Positions 6,001-64,000 of a stretch of DNA of 64,000 nucleotides are shown here, piece after piece. This DNA comes from Polytrichum commune (Eukaryota > Streptophyta > Polytrichopsida > Polytrichales > Polytrichaceae): NCBI GenBank assembly GCA_950295325.1, contig OX485807.1:64501-128500 (forward strand), given 5' to 3'. Made by a program: the position numbers and the translations under genes. Every line of letters starts with the position of its first letter. The stretch's first letter is position 1. The notes beneath the pieces were generated by a model that made no database searches, had not been told where the DNA came from, and saw nothing but the letters and a program-made list of their open reading frames with translations.

Positions 6001-9000
6001 TTCATTGCAGGTAAATATTGTAAAAAATGTACATGTCAAATAGGGGATTTTAAAACAGTGAAACATGTTTACATGTAAAATACCATCACATATATTATTT
6101 TCAAGTTTTTTACGTGTAAAATACCATCACCTTATAATCTTTTCTGCAAGGTAAATAACCCCCCCCCCCCCAATAAATAGGTCCGGAACGCACGTGTATG
6201 CAAAATATAAGAGGGAGTGAACCCCCCGAGGTGTGACGACTTGACCTCCTAGATTCCCACAACCCATTCACCATGTTTTGGGATGTAGGCTTGATTTTTA
6301 TAAAACACTGAAAATAATTTATGTCCCTTGAATGAGTTTACGGTTGGTATTTAAGGATTTTGGATCATGTCTCTTGGTGCCATGCATAAGCAATCTTATA
6401 GGTTTGGACACCTAACCTTCACACTACATGATTGATGTCGTTCAAGCACCCCAACACTTGGGTAAAAAGCAAGGTGTTGATGCCAATCATCTTCCGGGTA
6501 GGGTGGGCCCGCCGGATACCAAAGCCTACGAATCTTGACCACAGGCAGTGGTTCATGTGGCAAAACATTTGGAACCGGCCGTTTGTGCTCCACTTGTCTA
6601 TACGATTTTGTAAGGGGTACACCATCTTTGAACATTTGTAAAGCATCACCATAAGTAGAGAGTGCCACGGGTTTGTCACGGCTACTTAATATTTCATTTT
6701 CTTCGGGGTCAGGACTAGAGTAAAGCTTGAAGTGAGCCCTTGTTCCACTCTTACTTGTTATCGTGAGCTTCAGCTCATATGTACTATCAATCTGATCAAC
6801 AATCACAACAAAAAAATGATAAGTATATAGGATCTAGGATCCACTAATGGTGAATCATAATTCATTTGCTTGACTAGAAATGCAAGTTTTGAAAGGTGTG
6901 TGACCATCTAGATGTAATTTTCAACTATCTTGAAGGTGGAACTATAGTGGTTTCATTTATCAATCAATATTTAAAGTTGGATTTAGTTCAAACTTAGCAT
7001 TTTCAACCTATATTTAGTATTGAAGACGGTATGTATCACAACTATATATATAATGTATTTTTATCACATTTTGATTGGTCTCCCTTCATCCACAATAATG
7101 GTGGAAGACTCAACATGTGATGCACTTGTATTTATTTGCATTCAACCCACATCCTGTATGACACCACCATCCAATATTCTCAAATGAAATCATCATGAGG
7201 TAATTTGTGAATATTTGGTGACCCTTGTAGTTAATTTACTCAAACATGTTTATGACATTATAATATAACACATTAACATGCACGTAACACAACTATATTA
7301 AATATCTCTATAGCAATTTAACATCAAATGATGTTCTCTACCTGGACAAGACCATAATCCAACATAGCTGGAGAAAGGGCAACAACAGGACCTCGCACAT
7401 GACCTTCAACTTGAAGAAGATGAGATATTTCTCCTTGACCGGTTGGGTTGGTGAAATGACACGAGTGTTTGGCCTCTATTGCCCCAATGGTATGGGCCTT
7501 CAAAATCACAAGCACGTCTTGATTGCCATGTGCCACAACTATGCCAGTTAACGGTTGGAAGTACACAACATTTTTGCGGTGTGGGAGCACACTCTTAGAG
7601 GGGGTCCTTGGGCGCTCCCATGAGAAGTGAACATTAGATGGGCTATTGTTTCTTAGGACAATCTTGAAGTTGCGGACAGTGCCTAGGGTGAGGCCGCCGC
7701 TTACCACAATAAGAGGGGGTAGAATTGATACATCCAAATGGACTCCCACACCCAACAAATTTACCTCAAATAGTTTGGAAATCTTGCCCATATTATCTAC
7801 TTGGTTCACTGCATATTCTTCATTTGTGAATCTATATTGTTGTCGTCCATTTGATTCCTTATGAATCTCATTTTCTAATCTAAACAATTGATCCCTGAAT
7901 CTCTTCCATTCATTGGAAGCAAGGGGTAGGTCCATCCGGGTGTCGACATACAAGCGAGCAATGGACATGTATCTGATCATCTCTGGCGGTTTAAACTTCA
8001 TGCTTATATTTGTCTCAACCAATGCCGGGAAAAACCCAAAGATGGGTTCCGCAACAAATTCACGCTCGGCCTCCCAACACACCTCTTTTGTGTCTGTATC
8101 TTTTTCTTGTTCTTGCATCACCTTCCCTGACAAAGATACCTCCATTTGTCTCGATATTCTCCAATAATATCGAACATGTGTTTCACAACGATTATAAATT
8201 GTCAAGTTTCGACATATTGTTCCCCCAACACAACCATCACCAAAATTTACACCGAGGTCGAATTCTCCAGGCCTCCATTCACGACCATCAAGTCTCGTGC
8301 AATCAATTTGAAGGTCAACAGCATGACCTTTGACAACAACCTCCCAATGTCGTCCCGTGGAGGTTTCTATTTGTAATACACCTACTCAAGAAAATCATCA
8401 TACTTGTGTTTAGTTATGAGAGGATGTTTTGATATCATTTGACTATTTATCATAGTATACTTTAAATTTGTGGTTTCATTAGCATGTTTTTCCAAATGTA
8501 ATTTAAAATCAGCTTAACCTAAGTATCTCAAAGATTCATAATCAATCAACACTCTATTATATTTCGGCCCTATTGTCGAATGCAGGTACAGTAGCTTGAA
8601 ATGGTATGTGTTTGAAAATCTAATCATAAGATTAATTTTGTTCTCTCTTTTCCCTCCAATTATATATATATATATATAATCATTTTTTACAAATTTTTGG
8701 AAGAGTCATATGCACACCTGTGTATTGCCCTGCTTTTGGTGGCCTAAATAAAACTATTAATTCTTGTGATTGATCCTTTTCAAGTTTGACTATCCTTGGA
8801 TATGCAAGGAATGGCGCAAACAAGACAAAATTGTTGTTAATGTAGTAATCCTGGAGATCTTTCCATCGGATATCTTGATTCCACTCGGTTTCAATAAAGT
8901 CCCATTGCAAGTTGTCGCTAAAACCAAGCATGGCAAAATGAGCTCCTGCTCCTTTGCTTTCATAATGGTAAGAAATTGTGACCAAATGGCATGTGAGGCA

Positions 9001-11198
9001 AATGCCAAGGTCTAAGAAAGGTGGGAATACAACGGTAGGAAGTGGGTTAATCGACATCAAATGCACGATGCATTTATCCATCTCTGAGAGCACAAGCATT
9101 TCGTCCTCCACTTCCTTCACTGTCTTTGGTGTGTATGTGATCTCAAACTTGCAAAACATGCCGGATATCAAGATCTTTCCTTGGAATGGAACTTCTTTTG
9201 ATGTCATGTGGAAATAATTTGTTTTTGGCTTTATAAACCTAAATCAATATGAACAAAATGATTGGTTTACTATTGATTTATAATTGAGAGTTAAAAGCCA
9301 AAATACCAAACTTGAAATCCTCCACCAACTTAAGGTTTTAAGGTTTTAAACTTTAGGTTTAGGGTTTAGGGTTTAGGTTTTCATCCACACCTTATGATGA
9401 ATGAAAAAAGAATTATTCACAACATCATCCACAAATGGAATAGTCTAGAATTTCAAGAGTCACTTGGACTCAAAGCTTTGGACTTGATGGCTCCTCATTT
9501 TGTGTTTCCATTACATAGATGACCTTGTTTTGATATTCTCCCAACAAGCACAGTATATGGCTTAGTTGCTCTCCGCTTAGGAAAATTTACTTTAATAGGT
9601 ACCATCTTGTTCCATCCATGTTCTATCTCCAATGAAGGTTCAAAATAACCCAAATATTGGTTAATGTTTGGATTTTCCTTCCATGACCCTAACTTGCTTG
9701 TCAAGGAAGATTATGGAAAATTTGATATGTAACAACAAAAATCACCTCAAACGTTGGCTCCAAGGGCTTTTATTCACAACATGTAAATGTGCAACATATA
9801 CCTTCCCAGCCTCTGCAAACAAATTTAGCAAGCCTAAGCATCAACATTCACACCCTAAACCTACAAATTCGTAACATTATGTGCTTTATCCATTTGCAAC
9901 CAACACTTGACATGTGCATTAAATATTAATTTATTATATTTTTCAAGTCCAAGATTTTATATGCTAGACTTGGGCTTAAAATATCAATATTATTGGGAGT
10001 AAGTATCATAATCAACCCAAATTATAATTGCACAATAGTCCAAACCACACAAACCTACACATATTTATTGTTTATGTTTTTTTTTGTCTTGATTTGACCA
10101 CTTTCAAGAGTAAAAGCACTCCCCCCACCCCCAAACAACAAAATCTATAAAAAAAAATACTTAAAATTTTATAAAATATGCCAAAACAATGAAGTTTGAT
10201 TGAAGTTGTTGATTCATCATTATATGACTTTCAACTACAACCTCATTATTTAACAAATTAATGCATGAATATCATTGATGGTCAAAGGGTTAAATTTTAT
10301 GTTGTATGTATTATTATGTTTATCTAAAGTGTGTGGGTTTATGAAATCTTATATAATTCTTATGTATCAGCCTATCATTTAGGGGTCACAATTGCTTGTA
10401 GATGCAAAAACACTTAAGGTTCATGTATATTGGGTCAACCAATAGCAATAGTAGTATTATCATTGGTATTAGGTTCTTTTGCTCACCAAATCCGTCAAAC
10501 ACCACAATAGGTGGATCAAGATGACCATTCTCCACTGGGCCTTCAAGTGGCACCTCAATCCAATATGGCAAAGGTATGGCAGGATCTTTTTGGCGATAAA
10601 TCTCCAAAGCCTGAAGTACTTGTCATCCACTGAAGGTGTATTTTAAGTTGCCATCTCAACAAGTTTGTGGATCATACTATTCATGTGGTACTTTAAATCT
10701 GTGCAAATAAACAATGCAACACCTATCAACATTACATATGCAAGATAGCCAAAACTTGTAGATTTTACATGTAAAACATTTTCAATTGTTATTACATACC
10801 ATAAGTTATTGTGTGCGTTAGGTCTTATGATTTGAGTTCTTATCCCAATTGGTATTCATTTAGAGGTCATAACTAATATAATGAATACTTATGGTACATA
10901 GTTGAGTTTTTTTTAATTTATTTTACAAACAAGATAGCACACAACAAAACAAGGTGTCCATAACTTGGAAATATATTCATGTAAAGATAACTTAGAACCT
11001 CGATTAAAAGGCACTACCTTGAAGCGTTGTGGTTCCCTCCTATAGCGAGGATTGTTCAAGAAATTGATTCTTCGCATCATTCTTTCAAGGAGTTTGCATT
11101 CCTATAGTCAACATATACATTTATTATTGGCTATATCAAAATAACGCTACAAACTTAAGGATTCATTCTAAAATGGCATTACCCAACCCAAATATACG

Positions 11199-34447: not shown

Positions 34448-36611
34448 TGTTTTAGTTGTGGGTGATCTTGCACATGCATGGAATTTTAAACGTGGGAGGT
34501 AGTAAGACCCTCCATATTTGGATGTGATGTATAATTGGTTAGTCCTTGGTAAATTTGACCCAGTTGGCCTTGGTCATTGAGGGCATTGAGAGGTTGTTTA
34601 CCAATACAATGTGTGTAGTCGGGAAGGATGGAGGTGATGTTAAAGTCGAAGTCTTCATTGGAGAGGTGGGTTAATTTGTTCGATGTGCTTTTGGGCAGGT
34701 TACATATTTCTTTAGTTAATTTGATGAGGATTTTTCTAGTTTCTTAATATATGGTTTGGAGAATGGTATTGCGTAGTAGGCGTATGCTATGCATGGTTTT
34801 ATGACTATGTTTAGGATGTGGATTTTTTGTTTAATTGTGGCGGGGGAGGCCATTAGTAGTTTGCTTTGTTTTTTTGTCTTTGTCATGGTGATTTTTTTTG
34901 GATGTTTCATTTCAGTGAGTGGGTTGGGTAGATGCCAAGGTATGTATATGGTTCATTTTGTGTGAGAGTGGGGAAAGGTTTATTCTTGAACTGGATGTGT
35001 TGTGCTTGTATGTATGCTTTGAAGGTGGTCGGTTTAAAGCTTAATTTGTTCGGGCATCCCGTGATCGCGCATTTGGAGAGGCTAAGGTCTAGATGTATTC
35101 ATTATGATAATTTTTTGAGTTTGTGGATTTGTGGTTGGTTGTGGGTTACATCATCAGTGAGGATGGCGAGGTCATCCGCGTATGGTATGGTATTGTACGT
35201 GGTTGATAATGTTTTGAAGTGGTATCCTATGTTGTCTTTTCTAGCCATCGGAGGAGGGGGTCTAGGAATATGATGAATAAGTAGGGACTTAGGGTGTCCC
35301 TTTGGATGGTCTATGTTGTGGTAAATTTTAAGGTGGTGTTTCCAAGTTTTTTGTTGTTTACATGGAAGGAAGCCTCTTTGTTGGTGGGTTGTGTATGGTA
35401 GTGCCTGGTATGGTCGAGTGTTGTGGTGTGTTTTTTTGATACATGTGCTTAGTGTGTGAATTATGTTTTGAAATTGTTTTTGGGCTTCTTCTCAATATGT
35501 ATGGTGTAGATGTGAAGTGTGGAGTATTTTTGTGAGTGATTGTGTGGCAAGGTTTGTGGCTTCTTGGAATCGGATAATTATTTTTTGGATGTTTTCTGGT
35601 GGTATAGGTATGTAATCCTTGGGGGTTGTATTGTGGACTGGTCCGTTTTTGTTACAAGCATGTTGGAGCCAAGGTCTAGGCTGACGGGATAGTGGTCCGA
35701 GTTCTGATTTTGGTGGAGTAGAGTTGTGCATGTGATGTGTGTGTGGTTTGACATGTTAGTGTAAAACCCATCAATGAGGTTGGTGGATGAGTAGTTGTGT
35801 CCTCCTTGCCGTGAGAGGGTTTCAGTGTTCTGGGTGGGGTGTAGGGTTAGGGTTTGCATGTGTTGTGCCCATTCTTTGTCTTCATGGGTGGGGGCTTGAG
35901 GTGTGCCCTCGTGGATGTGTATTTGTAGAACAATGTCTCTGTTGAAGTCTCCTCTTTGTATGATGTTGTGCATAGGGTGATGTTTTACTAAGATATTTAA
36001 CTGGGTTCTGATTTGGGGGATGAGGTTTAGGTCGTTTGGGTGTGATGTCATATAGATGTTCATAATGAGGAGCGGTGTTAATGGTTTGTTGGATATTTTG
36101 AGAGCTTGTAGGTAATGCAAGATGTTGGTTGGGGTGGGGATTTTAAATATTTTATTAAGAGGTGTGTAGGTTTTTATGAATCATGGCTAACACTCCACCC
36201 CGCGGGGGCTTGGTGGTATATTGGCGGTTTCTTGTTGGGTTTGTATTGTTTGTGTTATTGTATATGATTTTGTAGTCTAGGCATTTGTTCTCTATGTACG
36301 TGGTTGATATGTTTTTGATTAGTTTGGTCTTTTGCAAGAGGATGATGTTGGGTTTGTTGTGTAGGGTGTTTTTAAGTTCTATGATGCATGGGAGACTAAA
36401 ATTAATGTGCCTTGTGTTTCATGTGATGATGTGTGTGTTGGTGGTGGCGGTGTTAGTATTTTGTGGTTGCAGTGGTTGTGCGTGTGTGTATTTTGGGTGG
36501 ATGTGAAGCTTGCAATTTTATGGGTGCGCGTGGCAATTGTTTGAAGAAGTTGTTTGGGTATTAGCGGGAATTGTATTTCAAGGTTTTGTTGAGTGACGGG
36601 CAGAGCCCTAC

Positions 36612-47298: not shown

Positions 47299-50271
47299 GG
47301 TTTGAGATGACACTCGACCTTCAAAGGACCTGCACGAGGACTTAGAAGGTTCCGAGCTAAAGGGTGCACCAACCAGGTAAGGGTTGATGCCTAATATCAG
47401 CCCTAAACCCCCACCCTTATGCGTCACAGTCCGGGTGGTAGCCTATGGTTCACATGTACTTAAGTAAAGTCAGTTCACCATTGGGACTAAACATCCAATG
47501 CACCAACAAATGAGTGACACATACACAACTTACTCCAAAGGAAATAATGTTACAAGCATTTAAAAAATTAATGCTCTTCTTTCTTGTGAGTATTCCCAAA
47601 CACCCTCACTTATCAAATCTTCACACACACATTTGATCATCCTCTACTCCACCTAAGCTAACTCCTAATAAACTTAATGTATACACTGAGTTAAACATCA
47701 TCATTGCACCTACCCATTACATCCATTCATCTAACTACTTGATCAACCACATCCTAATGTTTTGCTTGTCCCAATAACACCCTTATCCCTAACATATCTA
47801 CCCAGTGCTAATCAACCTCGATAGTCTGTGACCCTACTCAAATTACCCCTGGCCTCCAGAAACCTCCTCATAGCCTTCAAAAACCGTATTGGCCCTCCGC
47901 CTTCAGTGAGTTCGGTTTGTTTACTCTCCCAGCAGTCTTAACAATTAGACAACAGAATATTCCTCCAGCTCTGAAATCGATGGCGATCTCGGACCTTGCT
48001 GGTTCACCTAGCTCCTCCAGCCTTTTTCAACTCTGCCCGGTGTCTTGCACTTTTCAACATTCAATTGCTGCTCAGCGTAGCATCAACGTTCCCTCCTCGC
48101 CTAAGGCAGCCTTTGATGCCCTCTATAGTTGTTGGAGCTACATTGTCCAACTTAGCTGAGACATGACAACTTGCAGTTCAAACAGTACAAGAATTCCACA
48201 AGGCATTGCCTCGGCAGCATTGATGAGAACAGAAAAAACTCCTTGTCAGTTCAACCAGAACAAAACACTCCTCTGAAAACCCCAAGCATGGCACCCAACG
48301 ATTATCACAGGGGCAACGTGCAATAATGGTTTCTGTATCAGCAGCTCAGCTGCATCCAGGTCAGCCCTTTTTCCCTACCATTTCTTACCATGTTCCGCAT
48401 ATTTCGCATTTGCAGCTAACTGTAGCGGAATGCAACCCACCTCCTCTTGCATGTTGAATTCGAAACAGAACTCGCTAGTCGTCTACACAAATTATGGTAT
48501 CACCTATTGGCGATGTGAGTGCAGGCAGCTCAGCCTTCGTTCCGGCAGTTTTTGAATCCGCCACAGCCCACCTCCAGTGAATGCAACCCCCCTTCACCCT
48601 CCTGCAGTCCGACAAGAGAAATTTGTGGTGAAGGAATCATTGTCTCCGTCCTACTTCCTCGCGAAGCAAGGGACCATCCCACAATGTACCTCCAGTCAAC
48701 CACCACTCGTTCACATAGACAATGCAGCCCTTCATAGACCCCCAGAGGCCACATTCGCACTTGATCAAGCAGGGTGGCCCATTGAGGATTCAACTCCAGA
48801 ATTGAAGGTGGGGATGAGTAAATTCGAAGGTTTTAGCCGCGTGTCGATCATGTGCGTAAGGCACTTCATCCGGACCTGACACCCTGCCGCGCTCAACAAT
48901 CCCACCCAGAGCCTCCTCGGTACTCAACTCACCCCCAGTGAAACTCGAATTGCACCCAGCAAGATCACCAAATTCAACGGAATCACAACACAACTAGCTT
49001 ACCCGGTATCGGCATTCCGCCTCGCACCTCACACCTCGGGTTCATTTGGCAATTCTTAGACCCAGTAGCACCCAAGGGTTGTTGCATTATCTTGTGGCCT
49101 CACGACATTCCGCAAGGAGTCAAGAGCGCCATGTTTCGGTGAGGTTTCTTCCTCATCGTTGTTTTTTTCTTTTTCTTCCCAAGTACAACTTCTCAGCATC
49201 CATAGCGTGCCAACAAGCCTTCCCATCCCTCGAAGACGCCTCCCCACATCGTTGGCGACACGGCAGGGGCCGAGCTACATAATTTCGGCAGCGCTTCCGC
49301 CATGTTTCTATTGATGTCTCTCTTTCTCCTTCTCCCCTTCCGAATGAGAGCTGCTGGAACCAGATGTTCGGGACCCCTTCCGAACTCTCCACCTTTCCAG
49401 CGCCTCAACCCAAAGTTGGCTTCCATTTTTTTCTCCCCTTGTCTCTTCAAAATTGATAACCAACGAGAAAAACTTGGACACTAGCACTCTTGACTTAATT
49501 AGCACTTGACCCCTATAAGAATATGACCCATAGATGCCTTCACTTAAATCAACTTGGCATCTTTCCTTAATTACTCATAACTTAACACTCTTAATTCAAT
49601 CAAATCTAAACTTTTAAACCTCACTCATTTTTATCTTTTTGATTAATTAAAACAATTAAAAATTCTTAGATTTTAATGTTTTTAAGGTTAAATTCAAATG
49701 TGGGCACATAATTGGGCTCACACCTAATATATGAATGTAGTAAGGTAGGATGTGTAAACAAAATTAACTAAATAAGAAGGAATTTGTGTACAAGGTGGGA
49801 CTTAGGCCAAGTCCCCTCCGCTTAGGAAATTAAATATAACTAAATAAAGAAATAAGAAAGAATTGAATGGTCCATCAAATCGTCATTATTCTGTTCATTG
49901 GGCTAGGGGTGGTATGAATCACACCCGGTTGGTATGTATCAAAGCCATTTCAATTCACAAGTTATGATTGTCTTGGTTCCAAGTCTGGTTCACAAGTCTG
50001 GTGCATCTGCGCTTAGAATAGGTTGTAGGTTTAGGTTAGAACTAGATATGAAATTAATTAGGGAGTTTAGAGCCACAATAGTAAAAAACTAAGATCCAAC
50101 CTTCAGAGGTACTACAACGCATATTTAATTCCCCTCCAAAAATCTAAGTATTCATGTTATACACTTATCATTTGAGTTCGGCTTGGGCACCTACAAGTGC
50201 ATGCCACCTTCACCGAAGGGCTTGTGTGATATTTTTAGGCTCCCTCGGAAGGGGGTGGCCCAAAAGCGCCA

Positions 50272-50279
50272 CACGTTAT
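50272..50279. repeat. Target-site duplication, right copy, of the 7.9-kb insertion
   Basis: CACGTTAT, identical to 42333-42340. Joining the LINE at this point keeps the reading frame. Confidence 0.7.
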
Positions 50280-51100
50280 AAAACTTATTTTGGCCTCACA
50301 TAAACACGAATCCCAATTGTACCCATCTGCCCTAGAAACGACAAAGACACATGGCCACACCTTCTCTCCCTATGCAAAAACAAATTCCTCAAAGGACTCC
50401 AAATAGCAGGACACAATGCCGCCATCCACCAAATAACCAATCTACTAAAATTGTGCATTCACACAAGACACTTCACACTCACCAACACTGATACAATAAA
50501 TGGCACACCTCAAGATAAAACCATCCCACCATGGATTCTACGTTGTCAGTGTGACACTTCAAAATGTGTATGCCTCGCCAAATTACACCTAGACATCATA
50601 TACATACAAGAAGTGGCAACAAAACAAATAGGCCCACTAATACCCACACTTGACCTCTCCATATAAATTATCAAGTTCATATTTATTCACAATAGATACA
50701 CCACACAAACCATTCAAGCCAAACCAAAAACGGCAAAAAAAACAAGAAAACAAGAAAAACAAAAACAAATACAACCCACTAATTGAAAAAAAAGTGCACA
50801 CAATGATGGATAGTGCTCCCCTTAAAGTAATCCATGCATGTGTCCATGGAACCATCTATACAAACAATCTAGAAGAACTCCATAGTCTACACATACCCAT
50901 GACGTCCATCAAAAAATCAATGAAGAATATACACATTCTAGCCATTAAATATATCATTTACATGGTTATAATCAAACATAAACTAGTGAATAAACAAGCA
51001 CCCATAATACCCCTCTCCCGGGATTAAATCCCATGTCACTCAAACTATGAACAATAAACTAGGGCCTACCTACCGCAAGGTAGGCAATAAACCCTTTCTT
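50280..51100 (+). mobile_element. LINE copy C/D, 3' part (C-terminal Cys/PD region and 3' end)
   Basis: Continuation of the element broken at 42340. It reads KTYFGLT, RIPIVPICP, DTWPHLLSLCKN, then ILRCQCDTSKCVCLAKLHLD (about 50540-50600), matching copy B's CACPTIPCTCLAMLRPD. The PD of copy B is LD here. The C-terminal end (SIKKSMKNIHILAIKYIIYM) runs to about 51025. A hairpin with a GCAA loop (51069-51084) follows, in the position of the GNRA hairpin of copy B. Confidence 0.75.
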
Positions 51101-54100
51101 GTACGAAGAGACTCTTGAATAGGGGAGGACCGACATGCTCAAATTTATATTTTCTTGATAAGACTAATGCAACATTCAAGAATTAGGCATCAAAATAAAA
51201 TGACGAGTATTTAGCTACATATGAAAGTGATCCTCAACACTATACTTGGTGGTGTGAAGTCCAACCAAAGTTTGATTTTCCACACTTTACCTAAATGACT
51301 AGGTGGGACGGAGCCCACGTATTTGATGGGAAAGAAATGGTTCAAATAGGTGTGGGCCGGGCCGTACATTACAAAAGAATGCACCTATTTCATTTTGAAA
51401 TTATTGAGCTCCAAAAGCCTCTTTGTTTCCTATTAAGCTGAATAGGGGAAGCAACAAAAATGCTTGAAATCATTGCAGTTTGTTCAAAGTCTTATTCCGT
51501 ATTAGATTGCTCCTTGTACAAACTTGGCCACCTACACCAGACAATTCATGAAAGTGATATCACATGAGTACCTACTACTAGGCTCTACCTAACTTATGTT
51601 TTCATGATCCTATAGAACATTGTAAATCCTTCCCGATCCCCCAAAAATGTGGTTCTTGAGAGAATATGCCGGGAAAAAAAGAATGTAAGTTCCATGTATG
51701 TGGCCCACAACAAGTTGAAAAATTCCACTCTATGAGTGAGGCAGAATCTGATAGTTCCATCATAAAGGTAGATGGGTCCTAAATGGTTACTTTTTCTGAC
51801 CAGAGCAGGATTGCCTAGACATGAAACACGTGATTAGTATCAGATGATTAACATATCCAAATCGAGGATGTAGCCACTTTCCTCAAAAGATTCGAAGGTC
51901 ATATGAATATCTTGTTTATTATTAGAGTGAGATTCTTGTGTTCATTAAATGGTCATATACATCCCACAACCTCCATTGACCACGTGTCTTTTGATATACA
52001 TTATTGGAACCACGCCTAACCAAATACCACTCTTGTGGCTCGTTTATGCGCCACTTTTATCCTAATAGAACTTGACTAAGTGATCCAATTTAAATCTAAG
52101 ACATCTTAAAACAATTCCCTTCTAGAGAATGCAAGGGTATAGTTGCACAAATAAACATTTCTCAATTCTTTAAAGGCACAATGTTGAATAGTTGTATTGA
52201 CTTGGCTCATGGCCCCTTTCACATGCAAACAATCACTAAAGTTGACAAATTTATTATATGTGAATGTATGAGAGAAATTTGATTACATTGCATGCATTTC
52301 AATGAAAAAAACAAATGTTCCAACACATTTGTTGCATATGTATGAGATGTTATATACTAATGACCCACATGTTGTATGAACCTTATAGTGCACAATCAAT
52401 ATTGCAAATCACACGTATTGAACCAATTTTGTCTAGATATCCACCCAAGGTCCCCAACCTCACATATGCCTCTTCACATTTGTGAAGAACATGGAAGTCC
52501 AATGCAATTCAGAAAACAAATGCCACTTGTCATCCATTTTGATCTCTCGGAAGAAGAAAAAACAAGAAAGAGAAAGAAAACAAATTACGTTGGATAATTG
52601 GGCCTGCCAAGCAAGAAAAATGGCACAAGATGCATCATCCATGCAAATAAAATTAAATAAACAACACAAAATATCATCACATGTCATTATCACACCATCA
52701 TAAATCATGTGGCATCTGTTGGCATATTGTGCCTTTGAGAGGAGGGTTGATGGATGAGAATGATACGTACATTTTTATTTGAAGATGTACAAGTGTTGTG
52801 TGAATGATACATTGGGGTCCATTTGGATGAATGTAGTCTTCATATGTCATGGGGTGGTGGGACCACATCACCATAATAAACCGATTGTGCTCGTCTTAGG
52901 ACATTCAGTTGCATGTATGTTGGGTCACCCTATGAAATAAATAGGAGACTTGGACAATTCATGCTTATTTACTTTCACACTAAACCTCTTATATCCATTA
53001 CAATTGTTCGTGGTTATTATTGGATGTTCAATATAGTATATCAACCTTTCATATCTTCCACACCGATGCAATTGAACATGAGTGTGATAAACCATCTTTA
53101 CTTTTTATTGCACACACAAAATGGTCATCATATTTCTTGCTCTTGTCTATCTTAATATAATATCACGGGACTCCAAATCTTCCAAACCCGCACAATTACA
53201 TGTTCTTTCTCAAATCCTTGTAGCAAAATCATCACAGGTGCGTTGATTCATTGGCGATGGAATTACTTGGAGATTGAAAAATGAAAGCTGCTCCAAAAAA
53301 TTGGATGACACCATCCAGGACTAGCAATTGTGCTAAAGCAAGATTGTACATTGTTTTGGCCCACTAAAGGCAAGATGAAATCATGAACATCACACAATAA
53401 GATTGTTGACATAATTTTGCATGAGTAATACTTCATGTAAGAGGCATAGATAGACGTGACAAATGTTGTATCGGCCCAACGTAAGGATTGTTCACCCATT
53501 AGTCAGGTCATGCCATGAAAGAAAGGGTTGGAAGGGTCACTTCACTCTAAACCCTAAATCTTGCCAAACACCACCACAAATGGAGTTTGGGCTAGACTAT
53601 CAAGATAGGGTCTTTCTAAATACCATTGACGAGCGTTGCATTCACCAGGGTGGCGAGTAGGGGCAACACCGAAAAAGCCATAGCCTCAGCCCCCGAGCTT
53701 GGCCTTACCCCGGGCCGCAGCCTAACCCCTGACCCTGGACTAACCCTTGTATTCTTGAAGGTCGCTTGTCCATATAACTCATACCAAGTGCACTTCATTT
53801 TCAAGGTCCAAAATCCAATATATATGGTCACTTCCATTGAGTAAATAAGCAATTGATTGGGATTTCTTTTTTGAAGTGAACCTGTCAATAAAGCATATAA
53901 TTAACTTGGAAGTCAAAAACATTACAAACCCCTCATTAGCACTAAGGTTATATTTTTTGTGACTTACCATTGAAAAAACATTTTTCCTACTAAAATGGAA
54001 CTAAAATTAGTTTTTTTAAATTCTAATTTTAGTATGTTTTAAAATAATAATATAGTTAATACCTTCTACTTCACAAATTTTTCAGACACATTCAAATTAA

Positions 54101-55674
54101 TTAAGTTTGACTAAATATAATTAAGTGTAACATGCCAGGCTCATGGGGCCTAATTAAGTAACAAGCCTCAGCTTAATTAACATGCCTCAGGGGCCTAACA
54201 CTATTATACCCACAGTAATTGTTATCATATGGACGATTTTCATGTTTTTCTCCAAAGCATAAGTTTTGGAGGGCGGATGGGGATGCAAGTTGAATAATCT
54301 ACACTTAAACTTGATGTGGATATAAAATTCATGAGTAACTACTTGTACGCAAAGACCTCCCTAGGAGAATTCAAGGAAAATAAAATAAATCATAAAGAAC
54401 GTGCGCAATGGAACGTATTGGAATGCAACCAAATGCCTTTGATGTGTGTGTGTAAAATGGCCCTTATGTTAGAATTTTTGTTCTTGTGAAACCCCTAGGG
54501 AATTATTTGGTACGAGGCCACATTTTCCCACAAATTTCCGACCCATATAAATTGGTAGCAAGACTTAATAGTACAAGGGAGTCAAAGTTAAACAATTGTT
54601 GGATTAGTGAATTTTTTAATGAAGGGTATTGATGGGGTTGTTGATGGGCAACTTTGGTGATATGCAGTTTGATGATGTAGAAAGTGTTTATGACATATTC
54701 AAAAAAAATGTCACGGGTTTATGATAAGAAATGCATGTTTAAAAAATATAGAAACATCAAGTGTGAACATTGTTTGTTTTTAAAGATGAACCACATTTAA
54801 TATCATTGCATAAATATATTTTATGTAAGAATAAATAAATAAATTTAAAGTATTGCAAGATGGATGCATTTGTGTATACACATAATTGTAAATTCCAAAA
54901 TTTGTTGAATGATATATGAATCTTGTGATAAGGATTCTATACATGTGAGCCTCCGACAAGAATTAAGCTCATACATGACAATCATTGACTTATTTATGCA
55001 TCTTCCTCATCTATGAATACATTAGCAAGAACATAATCATTTAAGTTTACCAATGCAATTTAAAATGATTGAAATATGGATTTGGAATAGTTAATATGAT
55101 ATACAATTTACGTTTACTTGTTTTCTTATCAAGACCCGTGTTATAAGGAAAGGACGCAAAGTTGAGGGTCTGCCTTATTCATTTTATACCATGCATAGAT
55201 TCCTCGATTGTTTTTGATGAGTGACTTACAACCACAACCCTTTTGATGGGTGACATGATAAAATGTAAAATATCAATCTTGGGGGGGACCATACTTGGGG
55301 CTAGGTGTAGACGTGTAGACCATGGTTGGTATTTGCAAGCATTGTAACCGTATTCTAAGCGTTGTCATCCATCCAACACTTTCTCATGTTAGCCTTGTCC
55401 CTTTTCATCCATCTACCTCTCTTAAAAGGCTCACACCAAATGCCATGTTTGACCACCACAACATCCACATAAGTTACTCCTATCCATGTTGGTACGTCAC
55501 TCGTCTCTTTCTCATTCACCCACATGAATAATGTCCGACATGGCATTCATATGTCACTTTATCTGTTCTCATCCATTCGCACCATCATGGTCCCAACTCC
55601 CCACATGTTGTGTTGCGCAATAGATTAGGTGGGTCCATGAGTTATATGCATAACTTATGTGGTTATAATAATAC

Positions 55675-55707
55675 TATTCTTATTCTTATTCTTATTCTTA
55701 TTCTTTC
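55675..55707. repeat. (TTCTTA)n microsatellite
   Basis: About five tandem copies of a six-base unit. Confidence 0.95.
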
Positions 55708-56792
55708 TCATCCCATAAGAAGTTCCATGCATCCCACAAGCATGCATAAACAAACATTAGCATAGTAGTGTGGACTCGTCTGACATGTGCCATGCATACA
55801 TTATGTGGATGGAACTCACATAAACCTCACAACAATTCAATCACTACATGGAACCCGTGAAGTAAGGAGGATCTCATGTTTCTACCCATGCATGCAAATA
55901 CCTATGTTTATCGTCCACTTCTATCTTCCATGTGCCATCTTCTTTGTATGTTAGTAAATCATTAGTCTCACTCATCCACCAATGCGCCCCCCCCCAAAAA
56001 AAGAAAAAGAAAAAAATGATTCGGAGATAAGCCTAAGCAATGTGTTTGCACACAAATTTCGATAATAATATTTATTGCATATGAAATGTTATATATTGCA
56101 AGGATGCTCTTTAGATTTGGCCTTCTATGGCAAGACAAAAATATTGAAATGCATCTTATAATTTTGTAAGTGACTTATGTCCAACAAGTAGATAGTTATG
56201 TAAATTACGTACACCAATGATTCTTTTGGCACAAGTACTTGCATCATAATACAAAACAAAATCTACGGTTGGTCGATTTCGATGAAGCAATCTGTTAATA
56301 ATATGATTTTGTTAAAAAAGAATACCAAGTACCTTACCTCACTTTATAGTTTGTTTGAAGATGTATATGTGTGTGTGTGAATTTGTCACAAGTCATTGTA
56401 TTGATTATTGCAATATATAATGCCACAACAAAATTATACATTAGTATTAAGGATTGATAAACCACAAAAAAATTGCCACAAAAGACCAAACACTGGTCAA
56501 GCATATATCTCTTTTGATTTATATAGCTATTTTTTTGTATGTTATTATCCACAAGTATCATCTCATTTTATTTTAGAGCAAGAAAACAGTAGAACCGTGA
56601 GGCACTGTCCTTTATTATTAAAGACTACAATTATTGTTGTCCACTTTGCTCACACCAATCCATAATTATTTACTATATGTATAACCAAAACTTTCTTGGA
56701 TTTTGTGCGCCTTTTTTGAAATACGGGTCAAGGACTGAAGCTACTCATTTATCACCCGAATTTTAAAATAAATAATTAACAATTGCCAAAAT

Positions 56793-56866
56793 AACTATAG
56801 TTAACTATTTTTTTCAATACATTTTAGGGAGCAACTATAGTTAACTAGATATATACAACTATAGTT
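56793..56866. repeat. Three AACTATAGTTAAC palindromic motifs
   Basis: The self-complementary AACTATAGTT, each time followed by AAC, occurs at 56793, 56833 and 56857. Spacing is uneven. Could be chance in AT-rich DNA or the end of a small palindromic element. Confidence 0.5.
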
Positions 56867-57829
56867 AACATCCACATTAAATAAAATGGATCAAAAAGAA
56901 TAAGAACAAGTAACGTCCAAGTGGTTAGGAAATTTGCTCTTGAAATAGAGAAGTCGATGCATAGTCTTTGTCTTATAAATAAAGCCAATAAAGTGGAAGA
57001 GAATGAATGATGCATTGCTCCTACAATGTATCCTCCATCTCCACTCTCTACATCACTTATTTTAGTTATTGTGGTACACACTAAATTTAGAGCATCTATG
57101 TTTTTGAGACTGGTGCTATCCACAATATTTTAAAAACAATTGCTCTTGACCTCATGTTGTCACTTTTATATATACCTTATGTCTTTATCTTAAGAACGAG
57201 ACTTAACTTAAGTTCTAGGTAGCTCTCTCTAGTTTCTTACATGAAACTCTAGTAAACTAAAGCTGACTTAGTTTCATCCACATTAAATGCACATGGAACC
57301 TCGCATGAAGATGAAGAGTTTATATCTTGAGGGGCTGATCACACTGGCCAATTTTGACAACATTTGTTGGCATCTCCGACCGTAATAGTGTGAAAAGTGG
57401 TAGGCTAACATCTATTTCTCAACATAATCCCCAACAATTTCATAGCTAGAGCCGGGCGGAAAGTTTGGTGTGATCGGAGCCTAATCTTCATTCTCAATGA
57501 CTCCCACAAGGCAATTCATCCACAAACAAACTCACGGGCAAAAAATCTAACGAAATTAAGAGCTATGCTTTAAAGCTTAAAGTCAGAGCCAATAAATTTG
57601 TATGCAAGTCCACCACATTCAAAAATATGAATGTGTAAGTATCGTGAAGTGAGTTAAGTTAAATGCCATTGTCAAGTGTCCACATTGCCCTCCCTCACAC
57701 CCATGGTTGGTAAGTCACTTACTTACCACTTACATACTTACAGGTGGTGACGTTAATCGTGGCCGTCCCCTGTATCCATGGTGGAGGGGGAACGGAGCCC
57801 GCAGCCGCAGTGTCACCAATCTTTGTCTT

Positions 57830-58043
57830 GTAAGTAGAAGCGAAGCGAAGGGCCAGGGCAGAGCAGAGGAGAGGAGAGGAGAGGAGAGGAGAGATTTGCA
57901 TTAGGGTTTGGAGCAGGGGAGGAAGGAAAGGAAAGGAAAGGAAGGAGGATCGAAGTGGTGGTTGCTATGTAGTTGTAGCATTGGGAGTCAAGGATTGAGG
58001 TGGAAGTTGAATCAATCATACAGTAGTAAGTATCTATCTATCG
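57830..58043 (+). promoter_or_regulatory. Presumed purine-rich 5' leader of the HVA22-AMP deaminase locus
   Basis: Just before the ATG at 58044 lie a (GGAGA)n tract (57865-57893), TTAGGGTTT (57902-57910, a plant telo-box sequence) and GGAAA repeats. GA-rich leaders and telo-boxes near the transcription start are common in plant housekeeping genes. The start site itself cannot be placed. Confidence 0.45.
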
Positions 58044-58571
58044 ATGGGGTGGTTGTGGATATGGACGCTGGCGGGGCGATCCATGGCCGTGGCTGGGCCA
58101 GTGCTGATGCTGGTGTACCCGCTGTATGCGTCGATCATGGCGATCGAGAGCCCCGACAAGGAGGATGAGCAGCAGTGGCTCACCTACTGGGTGCTATACT
58201 CGTTCGTCACGCTGTTGGAGATGGCAGTGGCACCGCTGGTCGCCTGGATCCCGTTCTATTCCACCATCAAGCTGGCGGCAGCGGCCTGGTTGGTGTTGCC
58301 ACAGTTCCGGGGCGGGGTCATTCTCTATACGTGGTTTGTGAAACCGCATTTACATCTGGCGGTAGGGCCAATTGGGCAGGAGAAAGAGAAGAGCAAATAT
58401 TTGGAGCAGGAGAAGGGAAAATCGTTGGAGCGGGAGAAGAGGAAATCGGGGGAGCTCATTGGAATTGGTAGTCGCAGCAGCAGCTCGCTGGCAGCAACAG
58501 ATATTACAACACAAGCGTCGTTGGTTGGATCAAATAACGCAGTCGAAAACGGACCAGGTAGGTTCTCGTAG
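58044..58571 (+). CDS. HVA22: HVA22-like (TB2/DP1) domain exon; possible stand-alone 175-residue product
   Basis: HVA22/REEP-type proteins insert hydrophobic hairpins in the ER membrane and shape tubules. The frame shows [13 protein letters not shown], then [37 protein letters not shown] and [11 protein letters not shown] in the family's order, all in one exon. A charged tail with three EKEK/EREKRK clusters and a Ser-rich stretch follows. Reading through the donor at 58557 adds only four residues (GRFS) before a TAG. Thus a transcript ending in intron 1 would give a normal-length HVA22-like protein, whereas splicing fuses the domain to AMP deaminase. If the two are separate genes, this is the complete HVA22-like gene. 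Confidence 0.7.
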   Translation: MGWLWIWTLAGRSMAVAGPVLMLVYPLYASIMAIESPDKEDEQQWLTYWVLYSFVTLLEMAVAPLVAWIPFYSTIKLAAAAWLVLPQFRGGVILYTWFVKPHLHLAVGPIGQEKEKSKYLEQEKGKSLEREKRKSGELIGIGSRSSSSLAATDITTQASLVGSNNAVENGPGRFS

Positions 58572-61500
58572 GCTCGTCACAGTGAGTGACAGACACACGC
58601 AGTGGCGGATGACTCTAGGCACCTCTCAAAGTTATATGTCATCTGAGATACGAGTGACGTAAAATGCTCGTAATTGTAGTTGCGTTGGGATTGAATTATT
58701 CGAGGGCACATAGGTTATAAAGTGTTACGAAATGGAATTGGAATGATCCTTAGAGACGAAACCTCTCCCGTCAACTTCATCTATCTGTTCACGACTTCAC
58801 GATTACTATCTCCAATTAGTCATACTCACAGTCTGCTTGTTATAATTGGATATTTCTAAAACCCTGCACTGGCGGGGATCATCATCATAAGTAAGCGTAA
58901 CTCTGTTTTATAACGGGAGTCCAGCTTAGATTATAACATAGTGCTCTGGTTGGTCAATGAATGAACTTCAACTTCTGCGATGAAATGAGCCCCCCTTTCA
59001 CTAGAGCTCCAGTTGAGAGCTCTAACTTGCAATTTTCTGGACTTTAATACTTGGAGTTGATTAACATTCTTCCAAAGCTCAACTGCGGAGAGCTTGACCA
59101 ATATTCAAGCTCTCAATATATTTTGAGCAAGTGTAAAGTGGCCATGCTCAAAGGGAAATATGAAGGGGTGGATGATACTAAACAAAACAAATAATCATTC
59201 ATGACAAGCCAAAGAATGTGGAAAGCCCCTTGGCTTGGGGCCCACAAAATGAGAGCTTGAAACTTGAGCTCAGGACATTCCTCCACGACATAGCTTAGGA
59301 TTTTGTTTGACCGTGAGCTTGTTGTAGTCGTTCAATATGGGATGCATCAAAGGCGCCATCTAAGATTCTAATAAGTAGAGAGTTGGCGCCCTTCTCAACT
59401 TGAGCTTTAGTATTAAGGGGGCGTGAGAAAAGCTATTTTGAGGGTGTTCAAGCATTAGCTCACCTGAATTTTGGAGTCTTTTCTGTTGTTCGTTCCATTC
59501 ATGAATGTCTCATGTGAGAGTATATGCTTGTGTTGACCTTTAGGCTCCTATGTCTGTGCAGGTGGACATTATAGAAGCACTTCATCCTGGAGGCCTCCAG
59601 CACCTTCACAGTTGCCGCCACTGAAACCACCAATGCCGTTGAAGGCACTCACTGTAGTACGTCCTAGCTCACCAAATTCTCCTGTTGGGGCTGAGTCTTT
59701 TGAAAGCACTGAAGGTTCTGAAGGAGAAGATGACAACATGCTGACCAATGAGGGCATTTATGATGATGAAATTGAGGATGGGGATCCTAAGAAGAGCATG
59801 GTTGTTGACGGGGAAGTGAATGATGGATCTGAATTGGTGAGTTCCTCATCTTTTGTTTGGTTTCTTGAAGTGTGGGTCGGTCCTAGATGTTTATGGTTTC
59901 AAGAGACTTATCCTATAGTTGAGGATGTTGTACAGAGACTAATAAGGCTAGAGTATTTTTGTATTCATGTATTTGACAGTGGTCTACCCATAATGTACAT
60001 ACTGAGCATTGAGCTCATGCCCTGTCAGTACAGATTCCAAAACTGCAATTTTTTACCTCAATACCTTGCCCTTATACTTCTGAACCACCTGTCTGGTTCC
60101 ATGCAGGTAGATGGATTAGTGAGACCACAATCTCCAAGTGCTGAAAAGCCAGTTGCAAGTATGGTTCGATCACATAGCATAGGTGGGGAGATTCATGGGA
60201 TTCATGCTCCAGATCCAGTTGCTGCTGACATTCTTCGGAAGGAGCCAGAGCAAGAAACTTTTGTCAGGCTAAATGTCACACCCATTGGTATGTGTGTGAT
60301 ATTTTCACACTTCCTCACTTTTTACAATCTTTTCACACATCTTGTGCGCCCACACTGTACACACCTATCCACACCTGCACACAATGAACAATTTAGGACA
60401 ACCTCCTCAAGGCTCTTTTCACCTCCTCTATTTTTCTACTCTCCTCCTTAGTCCTCACCACAAGTTTGTGTGACTTCCACTCATGCATTGACTGGGCACA
60501 CAAGCTCCCTGAAAGAGTGTATGGTGGGCTTCACATAATGGTCAGATGATGTGAAAGAAGGCCTCTTATGGATTCAAGAGTTTATGGCCCTGCGTGACAG
60601 CTTATCCTCTGTGCATTCAAGCTCCATACAACACACGTTGATCCATCCTCTTAGGTCAGTTACCACTAATGTCTGTAAGAAATCCTAGGGTGCCGTACAA
60701 CTGAAAATTTTATAAGCAATAAGGTTCTTGGGTATAAGGGAATGTGCATCTATGGCTTTTCTTACTTTGGTCAATGCACTCCGTGTCTGATAACAGAGGA
60801 GCCGTCTGAAGAAGAGAAGGAGGTGTGCAGATATATGCATGAGTGTATGGCTTTGCGAGACAAATATGTCTTTCGAGAAAGAATCCCTACTTGGGAGAAG
60901 GAGGAGATAACAGATCCTGGTACTCCGAAGGCGAATCCTTATCCATTCCAGATTGAGACAGAACCAGCCTCCTCGGTATGAGTTTACGAACATCCTATCA
61001 CCTCTCACTTGTCCCCTCTCACTTGTCCCCAATATTTTATGCTTGGTGATTCTTACCTATCTTAGTTCTTGAGGTATCACGTGTTTCAGCTGTATGTCAT
61101 CAAAGTGGCTCTTATTGTCCTGCCAGGAATCTAATTGTGGTTATTTTGACTGCATTCAGCATGTCTATCGGATGGTGGATGGCATATTTCGGGTCTATAA
61201 GAATGATAAAAGTAAGTTTGTACTTCAATCATACAGAGCGATTAGTTTTGTATGTATTCAATTGAGTAAATGGTGACATTCTTGTATTTGTGTATTGTGT
61301 CCTCTTCCGGCAATGCCCAACTTTATTGTCTTCTGCAATTTTATCAGATTCGCAAAGTCTTTGTTTGGAGCACCATAATTGTTCAATTCATATTTTGAAT
61401 TTGGCGGAATTCTGTTTACAGGCTGTGAAGAGGCTTATCCAGTACATGATGCTACCACCTTTTTCACCGACATGCATCGCATCCTAAAGATCATCTCCCT

Positions 61501-64000
61501 TGGCAATGTGCGAACATTGTGTCACCATCGTCTCAAACTTTTAGAGCAGGTTTGTGACTTTGTGCTGCATGCAGTATGCAGATCCATGTTGTTGAGCACA
61601 ATGTTTGTATATAATGGATTCAAGCCTTGAGGACATAAGCAGTTGTGAAGGAGCACATAAGCAGTTCTACTTTATTCCATCAGGAGTTGCATGATTTTTG
61701 CTGACCTGGTATGTTTCAAAGTCTAAGAGCATCAGTTATAGTTTTTCTCTTCAGATTTTCCTTAGCTCCTTATGTTTTCTTCAATCTAATCTGAAATGTT
61801 AGTCAAAAATAACTTTGTTAAATTTGCCAGAAAATGATAATTTGTGTCTTTGAGTTGTTGCAGAAATTTAGCCTTCACCTCATGCTAAATGCAGACCGTG
61901 AGTTTCTGGCGCAAAAGAGTGCTCCTCATCGAGATTTTTACAATGTGCGGAAGGTTGACACACATGTGCATCATTCGTCATGCATGAACCAAAAGCATCT
62001 CTTGCGTTTCATCAAATCAAAACTTCGCAAGGAATCAGCTGAGGTATGAGACTAACGTGTTTGGACACTTTGCAGGGGGCACTGTACGTTTATGTTATTG
62101 AGGCATGAATGCATGTATTGAACATCATACATGTTTGTAAAAATCAACATTGTATGAACTTAATCAGGAACCATGAGTACGCAACTTATCTTCACATACT
62201 TATACCACAAGAAGTCAGTTTTCAAAGTGGACTGATTTGCAGAGTATATGTCAGCAAAATTGTTCATGAAGTCCTCTTTGACTAATTTAAGGGATACTTG
62301 TGCAAGCAGGTTGTCATCTTTCGTGATGGTAAATACCTTACTTTAAAGGAGGTTTTTGAGAGTCTCGATCTTACTGGGTAAGCAAATAAATGACTGTTCT
62401 GAAATTTTGATGACTTTTCTTTGGGACTTATGGCTTTCTTTATCAGTGATCCTTTATCAGTCATATTCATGGTTCTGACACCCTTCTGTTGTGTTCCTCA
62501 TATTCTGGCCCTGTTAAGCTAGTGTATTGTGCTCCACATCTATGACCACGAGTCAAATTACAAGAACCATGTGTAGATCAGATTCATTTATCACTGGTTA
62601 GTTCCTCGTTGTTGATCGTTGTGTGCAAGTCTGAAGCTGTGTAAAATTTACGACATCTTCAAATTCCTGTCTTCTTAATGTGATAAAAACTGGGATTGGG
62701 GTGTGTCTACCCAGTTACGATCTCAATGTGGATTTGCTGGATGTACATGCTGATAAGAACACTTTCCACCGGTTTGACAAGTTCAATTTGAAGTACAATC
62801 CTTGTGGCCAAAGTAGGCTGAGGGAGGTTTTTTTGAAGCAGGACAATCTTATCCAAGGTAGTGCTCAAGCATTTTGTGGATGCTCCCTAATGATGAAGAT
62901 TAGAGAAGTTGATTTGTCAGTTATCTTACTGTTGAGACAAGTTTGACGTTTTTGTATGTAGTCAAATAGTCTTTCCTGCTCTTGACATGGCATATATAGT
63001 AATGTTTTGGTGGGAGGCAGCTATATCCTAGTGCCATGCCTCTTGATACGCCTTGCAACCTTTACTGCAGATTATCAAAGATTATGTACATGGGTGGGTG
63101 ATCTTGAGGCTGAAATTATTTGGCAGGGTTTTGCTTCAGCATCAGCCATCTAACACACTTTATGTTACATCCTGTTTGAGATTACAGGTCGGTATTTGGC
63201 TGAGTTGACCAAGCAAGTTTTTTCAGATCTTGCTGCAAGTAAATATCAGGTATGTGATGTTGTATATATTGAATGTATGTGTAAGATTGCAGTCATATAC
63301 TATGCTTAGAGAAACTTTATCATATTATCACACTATATTGAATGGCCATGTCAGCAGTGAATTCTTAATGATCATGGTTTCTGAGACTTTTGCACATGTG
63401 TGAAGACGTGACTGCATTTTATGACCTCTTTTAGCTTACATGCATATTGCAACTGATGGTGTGCTCATAATCCAGATGGCAGAGTACAGGATCTCAATCT
63501 ATGGAAGAAAGCAAAGCGAGTGGGATCAGTTGGCAAGTTGGATCGTAAACAATGAGTTGTATAGTGAGAATGTCACCTGGCTTATACAGGTAAGTGTCAA
63601 GCTTGGGTGGTATTTGTGGAAAGATCTGGCTGCAAAAGGTAACACACAAGTCCAGAGTATCACTTCACTCCATGTTTTGGAATTATTCAGGTGATAGTGT
63701 CATCCTACTTGCAGCTGACTAATCTGATTCCCTTTTTATCACGAATCAATCAAATTAAGTCTTGTTCTCTACCCACGTAGTTGCACAAGTCTACTTGCAG
63801 TGTTTTAAGGTTGTACTCTGTGTACAAGGATGTGCAAAAGTCTCACAAACTGTAAACAATGCAACAATTACCTTTCTGTTGAGACTTTCTGTATTACTGC
63901 AGTTACCAAGGTTGTACAATGTGTACAAGGAGATGGGTATTGTGCAATCCTTTGAGACGATCTTGGAAAATGTGTTCACCCCTCTCTTCGAAGTCACTGT
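58044..64000 (+). CDS. AMPD: AMP deaminase with an N-terminal HVA22 (TB2/DP1) domain; runs off the right edge
   Basis: AMP deaminase converts AMP to IMP; Arabidopsis FAC1/AMPD is membrane-anchored and essential in embryos. Exons: 58044-58557, 59562-59836, 60107-60287, 60797-60975, 61127-61211, 61422-61549, 61864-62043, 62310-62377, 62715-62857, 63188-63249, 63476-63589 and 63903 onward; all phases agree, giving 675 residues so far. Exons 2-12 match FAC1 closely: [39 protein letters not shown] with zinc-ligand HxH at residues 488 and 490, [20 protein letters not shown] and [12 protein letters not shown]. The rest of the catalytic barrel lies beyond the window. FAC1 begins with a single membrane helix and a basic linker. 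Here exon 1 instead gives a TB2/DP1/HVA22 domain (residues about 18-100) and a Lys/Glu-rich linker (112-137). The AMP deaminase call is firm; the fusion is inferred from splice phase and the lack of another start. Confidence 0.85.
63790..63840 (+). pseudogene. Decayed partial copy of the start of AMP deaminase exon 12, in intron 11
   Basis: CTTGCAG then AAGGTTGTACTCTGTGTAC at 63807 resembles CTGCAG then AAGGTTGTACAATGTGTAC at the true exon start (63908). The best part matches at 22 of 24 positions. One extra base between the AG and the match would put it out of frame. It looks like a short tandem duplication, 101 bases apart. Confidence 0.55.

What the first reader, a model, noticed from the sequence alone, without database searches (positions are those of the whole stretch)
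58044..59836. HVA22/TB2-DP1 membrane domain fused in phase to AMP deaminase
Seen: the exon encoding a full TB2/DP1 domain ends at CAG|GTAGGT in phase 1, and the next coding exon (59562) begins in phase 1 with the Ser/Pro-rich AMP deaminase N-terminus. In-frame sequence upstream of 59562 meets a TGA with no ATG, and the first ATG in that exon lies well inside it. No single-helix anchor exon is found between 58558 and 59561. Known: plant AMPD (FAC1) has one N-terminal membrane helix. Inference: this lineage replaced it with an ER-shaping hairpin domain, which would place purine deamination on curved ER. I know of no described HVA22-AMPD fusion.
Basis: partly seen in the sequence, partly recalled or inferred. 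Interest (0 to 1): 0.82.

Follow-up and report, generated by a model that had tools for sequence, protein, structure and literature searches.

The report
HVA22 membrane domain fused to AMP deaminase
In what appears to be a moss genome, one of two AMP deaminase genes has lost the usual single-helix membrane anchor and instead begins, in the correct reading phase, with a membrane domain of the HVA22/REEP family known from curved ER membrane; the gene looks intact and under selection, but no transcript has been seen yet.

Summary
Exon 58044-58557 encodes a TB2/DP1/HVA22 domain and ends at a strong phase-1 donor; the next AMPD exon (59562-59836) enters in phase 1. The joined model has 19 exons and 925 codons and carries both domains. 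It has the same exon order and phases, but its exon 1 is a single-helix anchor ending in the same phase at the same boundary. That anchor exon matches strongly nowhere else in the genome search, and no alternative lies in the intron. A stand-alone HVA22 gene on C4 matches the fused copy up to about 58382-58388; beyond that the fused copy has a linker with an in-frame 24-bp repeat instead of the C4 tail. Corrections: only one of the two AMPD genes found is changed, and the C-terminal tail is gone, so an ER-targeting anchor is better supported than an ER shaper. No RNA and no second species could be tested. New architecture of known parts.

The parts
58044..58557 (+). exon 1: HVA22 (TB2/DP1) coding exon, 171 codons + 1 base, phase-1 donor
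58119..58346 (+). TB2/DP1/HVA22 domain (PF03134) proper, in one exon
   Evidence: (C5:122619-122846)
58379..58455 (+). in-frame 24-bp tandem repeat (3.2 copies) coding a Lys/Glu-rich linker; begins about where similarity to the C4 HVA22 ends (58382-58388)
58558..59561 (+). intron 1 joining the HVA22 exon to the AMPD body; no anchor exon, HVA22 tail or AATAAA found in it; its retention would end HVA22 after 175 aa (GRFS-stop)
59562..59836 (+). exon 2: Ser/Pro-rich AMPD N-terminal region, enters in phase 1; first ATG at 59633
60107..60287 (+). AMPD exon 3
60797..60975 (+). AMPD exon 4
61160..61211 (+). AMPD exon 5
61422..61549 (+). AMPD exon 6
61864..62043 (+). AMPD exon 7 (DTHVHH motif)
62310..62377 (+). 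AMPD exon 8
62715..62857 (+). AMPD exon 9
63188..63249 (+). AMPD exon 10
63476..63589 (+). AMPD exon 11
63903..64000 (+). AMPD exon 12, runs past the window end (to 64043 in extended numbering); exons 13-19 follow in L004, stop codon TGA at 66917-66919 in extended numbering

Best explanation
This is one gene encoding a membrane-anchored AMP deaminase whose ancestral single-helix anchor exon was replaced by a first exon from an HVA22-family gene. Shown: a two-domain reading frame with matching splice phase, the single-helix anchor exon in the paralog at the same boundary, no such exon found here, and low amino-acid change relative to silent change in both halves when compared with their relatives in the genome. 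Inferred: the HVA22 exon came, perhaps with its upstream control region, from a duplicate of an intron-free HVA22 gene like the one on C4, lost its C-terminal tail, and gained a phase-1 donor that splices into the old AMPD exon-2 acceptor. Inferred mechanism: the TB2/DP1 segments insert in the ER membrane, perhaps preferring curved regions, with the C-terminus in the cytosol, so that AMP-to-IMP deamination takes place at the cytosolic face of the ER. The paralog stays on an ordinary single-helix anchor, dividing the enzyme between two membrane placements.
For: 19-exon model, 925 codons, phases consistent, all 18 introns GT-AG. PF03134 at residues 26-101 and PF19326 at 321-913 in one frame. AMPD 2a3l (Arabidopsis) aligns to fusion residues 208-922 at 1186 bits, starting inside exon 2. 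The paralog at C5:43.037-43.050 Mb has the same 19-exon order and phases; its exon 1 is a 127-residue anchor with one hydropathy peak (residues 13-31, 1.77) ending in phase 1. The anchor-exon query lists 3 genome matches at E up to 10 (5 candidates scored): the paralog itself, and two at E 0.46 and 0.71. Exon 2 resembles paralog exon 2 (score 83; 0 of 1000 shuffles reach it); the 25 residues ending at the first Met do so weakly (0.042 of shuffles). Junction donor best of 73, acceptor second of 85 local sites. TB2 segment against C4 HVA22: 79 codons, pN 0.102, pS 0.701, 83.5% identity. The linker has in-frame 24-bp periodicity, and its codon score exceeds all 1937 (overlapping) stop-free 201-mers of window 1-57600, + strand.
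Against: No RNA evidence is available. Intron retention would give a 175-residue HVA22 protein. An AMPD starting at ATG 59633 would still hold the catalytic part. The junction acceptor is only average (16th of 36) and second locally to 58714. The fused HVA22 lacks the tail of its stand-alone relative. No second species could be examined. The selection estimates are pairwise and do not separate the fused branch from the other. The codon model was trained on exons 3-19 of the same gene plus the C4 HVA22. The linker shows no significant similarity to the paralog's linker or to the C4 tail (0.73 and 0.24 of shuffles reach the scores), so its origin is unexplained.
Confidence: 0.83

Rival explanations
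1. Two neighbouring genes: a short HVA22 gene ending in what looks like intron 1 (GRFS-stop), and an AMPD with its own promoter in the 1-kb gap, starting at ATG 59633 as a soluble, anchor-less enzyme.
For: The HVA22 frame stops at 58571 if unspliced; the first ATG of exon 2, 59633, is in frame; the catalytic region lies downstream.
Against: A strong phase-1 donor sits exactly where the reading frame needs it. The stand-alone HVA22 tail is not found. Exon 2 is AMPD-like from before the Met (weak). No AATAAA in the gap (weak).
Confidence: 0.1
2. Mixed output, not exclusive with the best explanation: the locus makes both the fusion and, by intron retention or early polyadenylation, a short HVA22-only protein.
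For: Retention gives a stop after four more residues.
Against: No direct evidence; the short form would lack the C-terminal tail of its relative.
Confidence: 0.25
3. A single-helix AMPD exon lies further upstream, or is diverged past recognition, and the HVA22 exon is skipped or is an alternative first exon.
For: The paralog has such an exon; a 34-residue hydrophobic frame at 55637 has a weak phase-1 donor (2.54), and the paralog's own anchor donor is weak too (2.67 leave-one-out).
Against: The anchor exon gives no significant match in the 64-kb window (best E 0.10, minus strand, 15437-15375; the whole paralog as query gives one further weak minus-strand match, E 0.056 at 23409-23110, covering its residues 81-176) or elsewhere in the genome. 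The 55637 frame is what other stretches give by chance.
Confidence: 0.05

Closest known systems
Plant AMP deaminase, Arabidopsis FAC1 (PDB 2a3l), and the AMPD paralog in this genome
   Same: Catalytic body; exon order and phases (paralog); N-terminal SPxSPV-type region
   Different: Exon 1 encodes a TB2/DP1/HVA22 domain and a repeat linker instead of one N-terminal helix
HVA22 / REEP / Yop1 family (PF03134); closest here the gene at C4:19143063-19143545
   Same: TB2/DP1 segment 83.5% identical over 79 residues; no intron inside the domain
   Different: C-terminal tail not found, a Lys/Glu repeat linker in its place, and in phase with an enzyme of about 750 residues

Membership tests
HVA22/REEP/Yop1 (TB2/DP1/HVA22, PF03134) | TB2/DP1 domain over the curated cut-off | tested here: met
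   90.8 bits against 27.2, profile 1-76 of 77
HVA22/REEP/Yop1 (TB2/DP1/HVA22, PF03134) | Several hydrophobic membrane segments | tested here: met
HVA22/REEP/Yop1 (TB2/DP1/HVA22, PF03134) | C-terminal amphipathic helix described as needed for curvature in REEP/Yop1 | tested here: inconclusive
   C4 tail not found in the window (best E 1.4; one E 3.5 piece inside the exon's own tail, 58474-58539). The best 18-mer moment is 0.47 in both tails, with mean hydrophobicity -0.39 here and 0.01 in C4: an amphipathic but much more charged segment is possible
HVA22/REEP/Yop1 (TB2/DP1/HVA22, PF03134) | ER localisation and membrane shaping | not testable with these tools
   needs imaging
Plant AMP deaminase (FAC1 type) | Full AMP deaminase domain | tested here: met
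   PF19326 980.6 bits, profile 12-625 of 630; 2a3l aligned over 208-922
Plant AMP deaminase (FAC1 type) | Conserved metal-binding and catalytic motifs | tested here: met
   VDTHVHH, HTGEAG and STDDPLQ blocks aligned to 2a3l without gaps; that these are the metal and catalytic motifs is recalled
Plant AMP deaminase (FAC1 type) | Single N-terminal membrane helix encoded by exon 1 | tested here: not met
   Present in the paralog, not found here

The most novel reading that the evidence does not exclude
After an ancient AMPD duplication in mosses, one copy exchanged its simple anchor for an HVA22 domain, giving an AMP deaminase placed on curved or HVA22-marked ER, possibly under HVA22-type stress control, while the other copy kept the old placement: purine deamination split between membrane sub-domains by exon replacement.
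Probability: 0.4. Interest if true: 0.72.

Novelty: new variant of a known kind. Interest (0 to 1): 0.55.

Why it matters
Why plant AMP deaminase is held on a membrane at all does not follow from its reaction. A natural anchor swap, with the unswapped paralog in the same genome as control, makes that question testable: it suggests that a membrane position, and perhaps a particular one, was kept through a complete change of the anchor. It is also a clean case of exon replacement at a conserved intron phase.

Tried and rejected
Retrocopies as witnesses of the spliced junction: the 5 AMPD matches outside the two genes (four loci, L008-L011, 8.5-9.5 kb each) were fetched. None shows exon 1 or 2 at E up to 0.01. 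L008, L009 and L011 match exon 7 only; L010 matches exons 4-8 with intron-sized gaps between them, so these look like genomic fragments, not processed copies. Linker derived from the old AMPD linker or the HVA22 tail: no support. No solved structure matches the HVA22 exon by sequence at E up to 1. No Rfam family (gathering threshold) and no tRNA in the window.

Papers: HVA22 with gene fusion gave 17 papers, 15 listed, none opened. HVA22/Marchantia/Physcomitrella (2 of 3 terms) gave 1,413, 25 listed, none opened. AMP deaminase/FAC1/transmembrane/Arabidopsis (3 of 4) gave 44, 20 listed, one opened. HVA22/REEP/reticulophagy/AtHVA22a (2 of 4) gave 35, 15 listed, four opened. Polytrichum genome assembly gave 6, one opened for passages and not used. 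AMP deaminase with moss and gene fusion gave 0. Of all papers opened I saw only the passages found by term.

A first dN/dS attempt gave no usable dS for the AMPD pair (-1, and a math error); own NG86 counts replaced it. A first anchor-exon scan required donors of 4 or more, stricter than the paralog's own anchor donor (2.67 leave-one-out), so it was repeated at 2 and 0.

Full report
What was claimed and what was checked. Sequence and translation confirm the exon, its donor, the acceptor, and the absence of an ATG between the upstream stop and exon 2. The window lies at C5:64501-128500 of a 407.8-Mb genome in 64 contigs, for which no relatives are held. The gene runs off the window end; I fetched the rest as L004.

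Gene model. Nineteen exons with consistent phases and 18 GT-AG introns give 925 codons and a stop. Exon limits were placed by eye from homology and then checked by script. Pfam finds TB2_DP1_HVA22 at residues 26-101 (5.4e-26) and AMP_deaminase at 321-913 (4.3e-295) in this one frame. The Arabidopsis enzyme 2a3l aligns from fusion residue 208, inside exon 2, to 922.

The control: a second AMPD. The genome search with the AMPD profile lists 25 matches from 31 scored candidates: 10 in the fused gene, 10 in a second gene at C5:43.037-43.047 Mb, and 5 in four other places. The second gene also gives a 19-exon model, 878 codons, with the same incoming phase at every exon. Its exon 1 is a 127-residue anchor with one helix ending in phase 1 (TGC A|GTAAGA), and its exon 2 enters in phase 1, as in the fused gene. 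So the boundary at 59562 is an old AMPD boundary, and the fused gene has a different exon before it. Cautions: two of the paralog's donors are GC, the donors of its exons 2 and 7 were my choice among in-phase alternatives, and the one for exon 7 scores poorly (-2.66). The two AMPD bodies are 76.8% identical over 727 aligned codons, with saturated synonymous change (pS 0.863, pN 0.079 over 402 codons; pS 0.878, pN 0.015 over 57): the duplication is old and the pair is constrained. By score against 2a3l the fused copy (1186 bits) stands slightly above the paralog (1139 bits), but the aligned stretches differ in length.

Is the old anchor hidden nearby? tblastn of the paralog's exon 1 against the window gives nothing better than E 0.10, on the minus strand; the whole paralog gives one further weak minus-strand match, E 0.056 at 23409-23110. 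In the genome the exon matches strongly only itself. A scan for ATG frames with a helix and a phase-1 donor finds, in 50001-59561, the HVA22 exon (donor 10.77) and one 34-residue frame at 55637 (donor 2.54) of the kind that other stretches also give; none starts in the intron.

Where the HVA22 part comes from. PF03134 matches two places among 16 scored candidates: here and C4:19143246-19143476. The C4 gene is a stand-alone HVA22 of 161 residues in one open frame. The domain segments are 83.5% identical over 79 codons with pN 0.102 and pS 0.701. The similarity runs from 58056 to 58382 or 58388, and a 24-bp, 3.2-copy, in-frame repeat coding a Lys/Glu-rich linker starts at 58379, followed by a Ser-rich stretch. 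The C4 tail is not found in the window (best E 1.4; an E 3.5 piece lies inside the exon's own tail). HVA22 genes with introns inside the domain could be missed by this exon-wise search; weaker matches on C7, C5 and C3 (E 0.02-0.23) were not followed. Passion-fruit HVA22 genes have 5-8 exons (passage of PMC10835403).

Splice sites and coding signal. A weight matrix from the two genes' other introns puts the junction donor first of 73 local GTs and the acceptor second of 85 local AGs; the training set is small (36 sites each) and the acceptor is average among them. The linker's codon score in frame is 0.30, above all 1937 overlapping stop-free 201-mers scored in window 1-57600 on the + strand.

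Likely working. In REEP5 and reticulons four membrane segments and a C-terminal amphipathic helix are both described as required for high curvature, and C-terminal helix mutants of REEP1 move to the bulk ER (passages of PMC11455953; on Rop1's helix, passages of PMC10409813). A review describes a two-hairpin model with cytosolic ends but says that the topology was not settled (passage of PMC9437294). Plant AMPD is described as having an N-terminal transmembrane domain (passage of PMC3042610); the original paper, Han et al. 2006, was not held and I saw only its title in a reference list. I infer that the fused enzyme is an ER-membrane protein with its catalytic part in the cytosol, and that the HVA22 part serves as an anchor or address rather than as a full shaper, since the tail is gone.

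The organism. Two of three LEAFY-like loci (L006, L007) carry D and C at two places where 4bhk has D and C and 2vy1 has H and R; L006 scores 218.7 bits to 4bhk against 171.1 to 2vy1, and L005 201.3 against 180.6. That 4bhk is the Physcomitrium (moss) protein and 2vy1 the Arabidopsis one is recalled; the listings name no organism. I take the genome to be a moss. Large contigs (C4 59.1 Mb, C5 52.9 Mb, C6 44.7 Mb) would suit a moss with few large chromosomes such as a member of Polytrichaceae; that last step is recall and inference.

Novelty. In the held library no paper contains both HVA22 and 'AMP deaminase', one contains HVA22 and AMPD (listing only), and none has AMP deaminase, moss and gene fusion together. 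Protein-architecture databases and plant proteomes could not be searched, so the fusion may already sit unremarked in annotations. I rate it a new variant of a known kind.

Noticed in passing
L005 (C1:40571878-40572195), L006, L007: Three LEAFY-like DNA-binding exons in the genome. L006 and L007 have D and C as in 4bhk, but L005 has H and R at those two places as in 2vy1. A moss with both kinds would be worth a look; another matched piece of the L005 gene (C1:40571425-40571670) was read through one TAG, which may be intron.
   Followed up: partly
L008, L009, L011 and L010: AMPD fragments: three loci match exon 7 only (83-89% nucleotide identity to the fused gene) and L010 matches exons 4-8 at 94-100%. 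Exon capture by mobile elements is a guess.
   Followed up: partly
L002/L003, paralog introns 6 and 9: The unfused AMPD paralog seems to use GC donors (CAG|GCAAAC, AAG|GCATAA) where the fused gene has GT.
   Followed up: no
7327-8205, minus strand (perhaps also 8683-9207): Exon of a cilium/flagellum protein gene of the CFAP65 type (PF24507, 9.5e-7, 29.6 bits over a cut-off of 27); the neighbouring frame has only sub-threshold matches to CFAP74/HYDIN-type domains. Fits a plant with swimming sperm.
   Followed up: no
35581-36120, minus strand: Weak match to an endonuclease-reverse transcriptase family (PF14529, 1.7e-4, 21.9 bits, below its cut-off of 27.4).
   Followed up: no
L001, 7046-6564 (C4:19143063-19143545, minus strand): A stand-alone HVA22 gene whose whole coding region is one open frame.
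   Followed up: yes
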